From positions 248,001 to 312,000 of the forward strand of contig NZ_RCUX01000001.1 in NCBI RefSeq assembly GCF_003667565.1: a stretch of 64,000 nt of DNA, in the 5' to 3' direction. Below are positions 19,455 to 21,584 of the stretch, in pieces. The translations under genes and the position numbers were made by a program. Within the stretch, counting starts at the first letter, position 1, and each line of letters starts with the position of its first letter. The DNA comes from Mycetocola tolaasinivorans (GTDB taxonomy: Bacteria; Actinomycetota; Actinomycetes; Actinomycetales; Microbacteriaceae). A model generated the notes under the pieces. The model did not search any database. It saw nothing but the letters and a program-made list of their open reading frames with translations, and was not told the DNA's origin.

Positions 19455-21584
19455 TTACTCCGCCAGGTCGATGAGCCAGTCGGGCAGCGCCATCGTAATC
19501 AGCTGCCCAAAGACCCCCTCGTGGACGTAGCCGACGCGCAGGGTGAGCGCCTGGCCGATATCGCGGTAGCGCACCAGCACGCGGGCCGTGCCGTCCGCAC
19601 CAAACGTGCCCGACAGGGCGAGCTTCGCGTTGGGTGACCCCCAGGTTGCACCCGGCCAGCCGCGGATCGTCCACTCCACCCCGGTGAAAGTCACCCGCGG
19701 ATCACCGGCGCGGGAGGGGGCGAAGAAGGCATCGTCCACGACCAGGGTGGGGGCAGATTCGCGGCCGTCGAGACCGCGCTCGGTCGCGGTGATCGTCACG
19801 CCGAGCGGCGTGATTCCGCCGAGCGCGGGCGTCGCCCAGCTGCCGTCGGAGGCGACCCTGGCCCGGCCGAGCTCTACCCAGGTGACCAGTGGAGACACCG
19901 CGGTGCCGGGAATCGGGGCCGTGCGCGGTGCCGCGAGCGCGCTCATCGGCACGGAGAGTGCGGTGAGTGACGCCGGGTCATCCAGGTGGCCGCGCACGAT
20001 GATCTCGGCCCCGGGGGTGCCGCCGGTTCCGGCGAGGGAGAGCGTGCCGCGGGAGGCATCCAACCGCGTGTCGACGTCGTGCGGCGGGATCGGGTCCTCC
20101 GGGCCACCCGGGTCGGGGGTGGGCTCGGGCTCGGGCGTGGGCGTGGGCGTGGGCGTGGGCGTGGGCTCGGGTGTCGGGTCGGGGGTCAGGGTCGGGTCGG
20201 GCGTGGGTTGCGGGGTCGGGTCCGAGGTTGGATCCGGGGTCGGTTGCGGGGTTGGTTGCGGAGTGGGCGTGGGCTCGGGCGTCGGCGCGGCGCTCGGCGT
20301 CGATGTGGGCGTCGGCGTCGGCGTCGGCGTCGGGCTCGAGGTCGGAGCATCGCTCGGTCGCGGCGTAGACGTAGGCGTAGGTGTGGGTGTCGGTGTCGGT
20401 GTCGGTGTCGGTGTCGGCGACGGCGACGAGCTGGGCGAAGGGCTCGGCGAGGGCGTTGCACTCGGCACCGGGCTCGCGGAGGGTGTGGGAGTGGACGCCG
20501 GGGGCATCGGCGGGATGGTGCCCGGTGTGGGGGCCGCAGGGGGAGCGGTGGGGTCGCCCGGGCGCGAGGTATCGGCGAGGGTCGGCACAGTATCGGAGGC
20601 CGCGTCCTCATGATCGGATCCGGGGGACGCGGTGCCAGAACCGCCCGCCCCACCGCCGGAACCGTCCGAGCCACCCGTGCCAGCGGAACCGCCGGCACCA
20701 GCCTCGCCGGCCGCCGCGGGGGCGGGCGGGTCGATCGCCGGCTGCAGCATCACGAGGAGCCCGGCGGCCAGGGCCACCGCGGGCACCCCGGCACCCATCG
20801 CGATCTGCGCGGTCTTGGAGGGGAGGAGCTTGCGAATGAGCCCCGGAATCAGCGAAACCGCGCCGGTCAGCGCGAGACCAACGGAGGCGGCCTGAACGCC
20901 AAACAGGTACCACTGCTCGCCGCAATTCTCACAGGAGTCGATGTGGGAGAGCAGCGCCGAACGAATCGGATGCGGAACCGTCGACCACCGCAGGTCGGCA
21001 AATCGGCCCACCGTGTCGGCACAGGAGTCCGCCACCAGCGGGCCCGTGAACGCGGCCACGACCCAGGCTTTCCGCAGACGCACGCGGGCCCGGTGCAGGG
21101 CCTCGCGTGACTGCCCGGGATTCATCCCGACGCGGGCACCGGCATCGGCCACGCTGATGCCGTCGATCTCCACGGCGGTCACAAAGTCGCGGTCGCGGTC
21201 CGAGAGCGTCCCGAGCGCACTTCCGAGCTGGTCGCGATCGGCGAGGGTACCCAGGTGATCGCCGGGTTCGGGCGTGATACCCGGAACGTCTTCGGCGGTA
21301 CCCACCGCAATCTGCCGGCCCTCGCGCGCCCAGGCGGTACGGACGGTGTTTTGAATGGTGCGAGTGAGATAGCCGCGGAACTCGCCGCGGGGGCCACCGC
21401 CACCGCGCAGCGCGTCAAAAATCTTGCTGAAGGAATCGGAGACGGCGTCCTCGGCGAGCTCGCGATCCATCGAGTTGGCCAGGCGAAGTGCATAGGCGTG
21501 ATGGCGCTCCCAGAGCGGTCCGATCGCCGCGAGGTTGCCGGAACGGACCTGATCGCACAGATCGGAATCGGGTGCATTCGACAC
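19455..21584 (-). CDS. ECF-type sigma factor fused to zinc-finger/membrane anchor, Thr-Pro stalk and extracytoplasmic domain
   Basis: A 709-residue composite protein. Residues 1-90 are sigma region 2 ([36 protein letters not shown]) and about 105-178 are region 4 ([40 protein letters not shown]). Next come HIDSCENC (about 215-222), the H-x3-C-x2-C pattern of zinc anti-sigma domains, and two hydrophobic segments (about 228-250 and 262-285). Residues 300-520 are a Gly/Ser then Thr-Pro repeat stalk. A C-terminal beta-rich domain of about 190 residues follows. Sigma, anti-sigma-like anchor and outer sensor thus lie on one chain. The GTG at 21584 follows AAGGAG. Release from the membrane, perhaps by proteolysis, would be needed for activity; that is inference. 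Confidence 0.88.
20090..20500 (-). repeat. Low-complexity Thr-Pro-coding tandem repeats
   Basis: Inside the sigma-factor fusion gene, short imperfect units coding for TP, TPTP, PTPEP and PTPDP repeat for about 400 bases (plus strand: gtgggc/gtcggc units). These form the extracellular stalk and are prone to length change by slippage. Confidence 0.9.

What the first reader, a model, noticed from the sequence alone, without database searches (positions are those of the whole stretch)
19455..21584. One-protein sigma factor with zinc-finger anchor and surface domain
The sequence shows sigma regions 2 and 4, an H-x3-C-x2-C motif like that of zinc anti-sigma factors, two hydrophobic segments, a 220-residue Gly/Ser then Thr-Pro stalk and a 190-residue beta-rich outer domain in one frame. 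Normally the sensor, anti-sigma and sigma are separate proteins. From memory, fused ECF groups with zinc finger and membrane helices (ECF52/53-like) have been classified but barely studied. A sigma factor tethered to the membrane would need cutting or a conformational signal to reach DNA, so this may be a one-component transmembrane transcription switch.
Basis: partly seen in the sequence, partly recalled or inferred. Interest (0 to 1): 0.78.

Follow-up and report, generated by a model that had tools for sequence, protein, structure and literature searches.

The report
Membrane-tethered sigma factor with outer stalk
One gene encodes a transcription-start factor joined to its own inhibitor domain, a membrane anchor and a long outside stalk; this kind of surface-to-DNA switch is known but little studied, and its near relatives point to an unexpected link with pili and other wall-anchored proteins.

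Summary
The frame is real: 709 codons, minus strand, GTG at 21584, collinear in Mycetocola lacteus, under purifying selection. It holds ECF sigma regions 2 and 4, a zinc anti-sigma domain (the family profile matches solved anti-sigma factors), one convincing membrane helix, a Gly/Ser then Thr-Pro stalk and a beta-rich, probably Ig-like outer part. One correction: of the two hydrophobic segments only the second is conserved as a membrane helix; two crossings would put the tail inside the cell.

The design is known: ECF52 (SCO4117) and ECF48/53 are described as sigma + zinc finger + membrane helix + extension, with proteolytic release proposed. The window protein is not ECF52 proper: no NPCBM domain found, and outside the NPCBM clade.

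Its own eight-row clade holds a surprise. In two genomes the sigma factor's outer end is a pilin domain with a sortase signal, encoded next to a major pilin and a class C sortase; 5 of 6 non-Mycetocola loci of the clade have a sortase-signal protein within three genes. The window protein itself has neither signal nor such neighbours.

Verdict: new variant of a known kind, with a testable link between tethered sigma factors and sortase-anchored surface structures.

The parts
19455..21584 (-). whole gene, 709 codons, GTG start at 21584, stop at 19455-19457
   Evidence: orthologue in M. lacteus L094 7989-9830
21593..21598 (-). AAGGAG, ribosome-binding-site-like, 8 bases before the GTG
   Evidence: sequence
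21315..21569 (-). sigma region 2, about residues 6-90
   Evidence: Pfam PF04542 at 26-90; match to SigE and CnrH chains
21069..21233 (-). sigma region 4, about residues 118-172
   Evidence: Pfam PF08281 at 118-170, just under cut-off; NCBIfam sigma70-ECF 24-173 over cut-off
20913..21029 (-). zinc anti-sigma (ZAS-like) core, about residues 186-224
   Evidence: profile A10 of 31 relatives matches solved anti-sigma domains; the window protein alone does not reach Pfam zf-HC2
20922..20945 (-). H-x3-C-x2-C motif, residues 214-221 (HIDSCENC)
   Evidence: 39 of 39 loci
20847..20909 (-). first hydrophobic segment, residues 226-246; more likely part of the anti-sigma domain than a membrane crossing
   Evidence: helix 224-253 in a low-confidence model
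20745..20807 (-). membrane helix, residues 260-280, preceded by R/K and followed by acidic residues
20073..20738 (-). stalk, residues 283-504: Gly/Ser-rich, then Thr-Pro-rich
   Evidence: length differs in M. lacteus (709 and 613 aa in all)
19458..20072 (-). outer part, residues 505-709, probably Ig-like (Big_6-type) plus a second beta module
   Evidence: iterated profile reaches 31 of 60 family tails, itself included; Pfam nothing in the window tail, Big_6 at E 0.12 in the M. lacteus tail

Best explanation
A single-pass, membrane-tethered ECF sigma factor that carries its own zinc anti-sigma domain. At rest the ZAS-like domain holds the sigma domain inactive at the inner face of the membrane. 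The helix at 260-280 crosses once, N-terminus inside, and the Thr-Pro stalk carries the outer part into or through the cell wall. An event at the outer part (binding, or strain on wall or surface structures) leads to a first cut in the Gly/Ser-rich stretch next to the membrane, then a cut inside the membrane by the M50 (RseP/Rip1-type) protease; the freed sigma fragment works once its ZAS part is removed or changes shape. Shown here: the domains and their order, the zinc motif across the family, a topology that favours one crossing, purifying selection, one M50 gene in the genome. Inferred: inhibition in cis, the cuts, the signal and the targets.
For: Sigma domain. Zinc anti-sigma domain: motif in 39 of 39 loci and profile matches to 3hug_B (8.5e-7), RsiW (3.6e-5), ChrR (3e-4), DdvA (3.9e-4) and weakly RsrA (0.34). 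Topology: of 60 members the second segment scores better than the first in 52; the stretch between them is more positive in net charge than the 30 residues behind the second in 48, equal in 5, less in 7. The outer ends of relatives are of kinds that work outside the cell: NPCBM in 9, Big_6 in 8, Big_13 in 8, SpaA in 2 of 60, and two carry a sortase signal. One M50 protease gene in the own genome. Precedents in print: IutY is released by Prc and RseP, and the same is expected for ECF48/52/53 (PMC8999054; PMC7593790 passages).
Against: No PrsW-type first protease found in the own genome, and the first cutter is unknown. In the window protein the two hydrophobic segments score alike, so two crossings are not excluded by score. 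Structure models are poor (mean pLDDT 45.1 and 48.7). No target promoter was found. Only 2 of 4 genomes of the genus have this orthologue. In the SCO4117 study the sigma part alone did not restore the full phenotype.
Confidence: 0.6

Rival explanations
1. Same tethered protein, activated without cutting: the zinc domain lets go through a change of shape, loss of zinc or thiol oxidation, and the outer part serves as anchor or as a sensor that passes a conformational change through the helix.
For: The H-x3-C-x2-C domain resembles, weakly, the redox-sensing RsrA (E 0.34). The own genome holds a family member with sigma and zinc motif but no membrane part (L015), so the zinc domain can act without a membrane. 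Conformational change has been named beside proteolysis for ECF52 (PMC5826349 Discussion).
Against: A single helix is a poor carrier of shape changes (inference); the best experimental precedent of a fused sigma/anti-sigma protein, IutY, is cut.
Confidence: 0.2
2. Both hydrophobic segments cross the membrane, so the stalk and the last domain lie in the cytoplasm or the protein sits as a hairpin; the tail would then not be a sensor of the outside.
For: In the window protein the two segments score alike, 3.8 and 3.5.
Against: The short loop between them is positive (3 K/R, no D/E) and the stretch behind the second acidic; L087-L089 have no first helix; the two sigma-pilins have one predicted helix between zinc motif and pilin domain and a sortase signal at the end, which only makes sense outside; NPCBM, Ig-like and Thr-Pro stalks are outside features.
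Confidence: 0.07
3. The sigma domain has decayed and the protein now serves as a surface or wall protein only.
For: Region 4 is just under, region 2 just over its Pfam cut-off; the window and M. lacteus pair sits on a long branch (1.51 changes per column).
Against: The N part is more constrained than the outer part (dN/dS 0.25 against 0.42); D46, L127, R165 and the zinc ligands, invariant in 60 rows, are kept.
Confidence: 0.08

Closest known systems
ECF52 sigma factors (SCO4117 of Streptomyces coelicolor)
   Same: Same order: ECF sigma domain, zinc finger, membrane region, proline-rich stretch, outer domain (PMC5826349).
   Different: No NPCBM domain found in the window protein; it lies outside the clade of the nine NPCBM rows (support 99) in a clade of its own (96). 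Different outer part.
ECF48 and ECF53 groups
   Same: Described as C-terminal fusions to a zinc-finger anti-sigma part with one to two membrane helices and extensions of up to 400 residues (PMC8999054).
   Different: Could not be compared: no reference sequences or group profiles were at hand.
IutY of Pseudomonas putida (ECF243)
   Same: Sigma and membrane-bound anti-sigma in one protein; works by Prc and RseP cuts.
   Different: Part of an iron-uptake surface-signalling system of a Gram-negative; no stalk or Ig-like tail described in what I read.
Gram-positive sortase-built pili (SpaH/EbpB pilins with class C sortase)
   Same: Two relatives in the window's clade (L097, L098) end in a SpaA pilin domain over the Pfam cut-off; the L097 protein also passes the SpaH/EbpB model (100.5 bits, cut-off 95). 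Both lie beside a major pilin and a sortase.
   Different: The window protein has no sortase signal and no pilin or sortase neighbour; ordinary pilins carry no sigma factor (recalled).

Membership tests
ECF sigma factors (general) | sigma regions 2 and 4 without 1 and 3 | tested here: met
   NCBIfam TIGR02937 44 bits, cut-off 42.9; Pfam r2 over, r4_2 just under cut-off
sigma factors with fused zinc anti-sigma (ZAS) domain | H-x3-C-x2-C domain related to known anti-sigma factors | tested here: met
   motif at 214-221; family profile matches solved anti-sigma domains. The window protein alone does not score with Pfam zf-HC2; 50 of 60 relatives do
sigma factors with fused zinc anti-sigma (ZAS) domain | inhibition of the sigma domain by the fused part | not testable with these tools
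   needs experiment
ECF52 | membrane region and proline-rich stretch behind the zinc finger | tested here: met
ECF52 | NPCBM carbohydrate-binding domain at the C-terminus | tested here: not met
   no Pfam match in the whole protein at E 1 or in the tail at E 5
ECF52 | place in the clade of NPCBM-bearing members | tested here: not met
   quick tree of 62 rows; SCO4117 itself was not in it
ECF52 | score with the published ECF52 group profile | not testable with these tools
   profiles not held
ECF53 | score with the published ECF53 group profile | not testable with these tools
   profiles and reference protein not held
sortase substrates | C-terminal LxxTG-like signal, hydrophobic stretch, basic tail | tested here: not met
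   window protein ends in DWLIDLAE; not flagged, while L036 and L038 are

The most novel reading that the evidence does not exclude
The window protein belongs to a branch of tethered sigma factors that watch sortase-built surface structures. Their outer ends are fixed to, or touch, the wall or a pilus (in two relatives the sigma factor is itself a pilin-ended sortase substrate), so that assembly, loss or pulling of the structure exposes a cut site and frees the sigma factor: a bacterial counterpart of a pull-and-cut receptor such as Notch.
Probability: 0.22. Interest if true: 0.88.

Novelty: new variant of a known kind. Interest (0 to 1): 0.57.

Why it matters
For tethered sigma factors of the ECF48/52/53 kind, proteolytic release has been proposed, but what they sense is open. 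Here the window's clade uses other outer ends than the NPCBM of ECF52, and its non-Mycetocola members sit beside sortase-signal surface proteins. That gives a concrete candidate signal. The sigma-pilin with its neighbouring major pilin and class C sortase is a compact system in which receptor, structure and possible target genes lie together, so the question of what such a sigma factor senses becomes directly testable.

Tried and rejected
Rejected: the longer start up to 21722 (the orthologue starts opposite 21584). Rejected: opposite-strand frames 19588-20613 and 19986-21110, which mirror the repetitive stalk. Rejected: PDB matches of the stalk to AaBglC, circumsporozoite protein and others, as low complexity. 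Rejected: strict ECF52 membership. Led nowhere: structure models (mean pLDDT 45.1 and 48.7) and a PDB fold search with the outer-part model: 1843 matches at E 10, none at 0.001; the listed ones are mostly antibody chains, which fits an Ig-like fold but proves nothing. A search of 150 same-family genomes with the two-row outer-part profile found only the own gene and one weak match, 4.9e-5, with a stop inside. Reading upstream regions for an ECF promoter gave no consistent pair of boxes.

Limits of the counts. Searches (55 of 150 genomes, E 1e-15; 59 of 150, E 1e-30) count matches to the N part, not the full design. (223 of 396 phylum genomes) includes sigma factors without the extension: 3 of the 30 loci fetched (L084, L091, L093) had no zinc motif. 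Alignment A6 (60 rows) left out those three, L015 and L051 (no tail, or a broken one), the duplicates L064-L066 and L069, and took window and L094 for L009, L010 and L013. The tree left out seven A6 rows (L016, L020, L072, L083, L086, L090, L092), added L102, L104 and seven own-genome sigma factors; it is a quick search with several long branches, and the NPCBM rows were labelled by eye from their tails (Pfam counts 9 members). I labelled L015 there as ordinary although it has the zinc motif. In one search the segment rule misassigns members with a single helix before a long tail (L035, L036, L038) and L016. One search scored three candidates per genome and cut its list, so 2 of 398 sigma-pilins is a lower bound. 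In one search genes are mechanical ORF calls; no sigma gene was called in L145; the LSATG protein beside the sigma gene of G599 was missed; three genera (g51, g15, g61) stand behind the six clade loci. The Fisher tests (P 0.0004 for all same-family loci, 0.0003 with all loci, 0.008 without the window clade, 0.002 with one locus per genus in the clade, using rounded gene numbers) treat genes as independent, and the rule was written after the first cases had been seen.

Full report
What is there. The minus-strand frame 19455-21584 is open for 709 codons. It starts with GTG, has AAGGAG 8 bases before it, and its orthologue in Mycetocola lacteus JCM 11654 starts with ATG at the same place. The 16.7 kb held around that orthologue align with the window in one order with gaps, so the window comes from Mycetocola or a near relative. 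The aligned N part is 70% and the outer part 55% identical; differences gather at third codon positions, and dN/dS is 0.25 and 0.42. The whole proteins are 709 and 613 aa; the difference lies mostly in the stalk. Of four genomes of the genus, two hold this orthologue; the other two have only matches of 35% or less.

The parts. Sigma region 2 passes its Pfam cut-off narrowly and region 4 just misses it; the NCBIfam ECF model is passed; the nearest solved chains are SigE and CnrH. The zinc motif H214-x3-C218-x2-C221 was found in 39 of 39 loci and 27 of 30. Pfam zf-HC2 recognises 50 of 60 members of A6 but not the window protein. A profile of 31 members (window, L094 and every second of the rest) finds solved anti-sigma domains: 3hug_B (which I recall as RslA), RsiW, ChrR, DdvA and, weakly, RsrA; one further hit is a CHAT-domain protein at 0.0063. 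So the anti-sigma identity of the family was tested.

Topology. If both crossed the membrane, the outer domain would lie in the cytoplasm. Of 60 members the second segment scores better in 52; the stretch between them has the higher net charge than the 30 residues behind the second in 48, equal in 5, lower in 7; in L087-L089 the first segment scores far too badly for a membrane helix (scale from memory). In the window protein the two score alike, 3.8 and 3.5. The two sigma-pilins have one predicted helix between zinc motif and pilin domain. One crossing, N-terminus inside, is the best reading; the first segment is probably part of the anti-sigma domain.

The outer part. Pfam finds nothing in the window tail and Big_6 at E 0.12 in the M. 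lacteus tail. An iterated profile started from the two tails reaches 31 of 60 sequences, itself included. Big_6 and Big_13 each match 8 of 60 members. An Ig-like fold is likely but not shown, as the model is poor and the fold search gave nothing significant. The Thr-Pro stalk, if extended, is long enough to cross a Gram-positive wall (inference).

How common. The window's N part matches 55 of 150 same-family genomes at 1e-15; a 15-row profile matches 59 of 150 at 1e-30, in 43 of 85 genera. Genome G006 has 17 matches, all that were scored, in open frames of 410 to 704 codons.

Tree. In a quick tree of 62 rows, window and M. lacteus group with L036 and L038 (genus g51), L035, L104 and L102 (g15) and L037 (g61), support 96. 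The nine NPCBM rows form another clade, support 99. Strict ECF52 membership is therefore not claimed; SCO4117 itself was not in the tree.

The clade's surroundings. In G122 and G053 the sigma protein (605 and 585 codons, starts not verified) runs on behind its membrane helix into a SpaA pilin domain over the Pfam cut-off and ends in LSMTG, a hydrophobic stretch and KRQRK. Its Pfam sigma scores are under the cut-offs, but the G122 protein passes both the NCBIfam ECF model (53.6 bits, cut-off 42.9) and the SpaH/EbpB pilin model (100.5, cut-off 95). Next on the same strand follow a SpaH/EbpB major pilin (6.5e-96) and a class C sortase (3.5e-77) (G122; Pfam pilin and sortase matches in both). A conserved hairpin lies between the sigma and pilin genes, so they may not share one transcript. 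Full-length sigma-pilins were seen in 2 of 398 same-family genomes, both of one genus (a lower bound). In G017 and G680 a surface protein ending in LVNTG lies two genes from the sigma gene (the G017 one matches DUF5979); in G063 an LTLTG protein is the direct neighbour; in G599 an LSATG protein is convergent beside it.

Is that more than chance? By one rule for sortase signals, such a protein lies within three genes in 5 of 6 non-Mycetocola loci of the clade, 3 of 20 loci of the main same-family clade (one of the 20 had no sigma call), 2 of 6 other family loci in same-genus genomes, 0 of 6 NPCBM-type loci, 0 of 2 others, and 0 of 2 for window and M. lacteus. Per gene among same-family loci: 10 of 182 near, 1 of 300 further away (P 0.0004). 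The rule was written after the first cases had been seen and the loci are not independent, so this is a lead to be repeated. The window protein itself, with no sortase signal and no such neighbour, is evidence against extending the link to it without more work.

Mechanism. The model is given in Best explanation. The own genome has one M50 protease, no PrsW match, one sortase and one zf-HC2 match. The cut is inferred from IutY and from what is proposed for ECF48/52/53. Papers seen: PMC8999054 (abstract; section 3.5, part 1 of 2; figures and tables), PMC5826349 (abstract, gene-structure section, Discussion), PMC7593790 (passages), PMC10766802 (passages), PMC11677781 (passages).

Known or new. 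The architecture is known. Searches of an open-access library gave no report of a sigma factor fused to a pilin or of sortase-signal neighbours: 91 held no paper, and the one paper speaks of a separate anti-sigma protein and pilus genes in Clostridium perfringens. The other listings were judged by title and abstract start. Most subscription papers, so presumably the ECF classification papers too, are not held, so novelty is not proved. The window protein is a new variant of a known kind; the sigma-pilin is its more striking relative.

Noticed in passing
L097 5285-10122 and L098 5272-10048 (genomes G122, G053): A tethered sigma factor whose outer end is a SpaA pilin domain with an LSMTG sortase signal, followed on the same strand by a SpaH/EbpB-type major pilin and a class C sortase.
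   Followed up: partly
L146-L148, L150, L124, L130, L134, L140, L163, L164: Proteins with sortase-type signals lie within three genes of tethered-sigma genes far more often than further away (10 of 182 against 1 of 300 genes).
   Followed up: partly
L015 (own genome G000, C13:77200-77805): A family member in a 231-codon frame with sigma domain and H-x3-C-x2-C motif but no membrane segment or tail: a soluble version of the same switch.
   Followed up: no
genome G006: At least 17 family members in one 3.8 Mb genome, in open frames of 410-704 codons; tails not compared.
   Followed up: no
L125 6418-13451 (genome G680): A shortened sigma member of 241 codons, two LANTG-type surface proteins and another sigma member of 580 codons, all on the minus strand.
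   Followed up: no
L097 7984-8304 and L098 7965-8290: A long conserved hairpin followed by T-rich sequence between the sigma-pilin gene and the pilin gene, terminator-like; the pilin may have its own promoter.
   Followed up: no
window 21789-21905: Non-coding block upstream of the sigma gene, 77% identical in M. lacteus over 121 columns, with an unbroken CGGTCTTACCCGCCG.
   Followed up: no
window 18922-19383: Small lipoprotein-like frame (VSGC near the N-terminus), convergent to the sigma gene; M. lacteus has a frame of similar size (157 aa) in the same place and orientation (L094 9834-10307).
   Followed up: no
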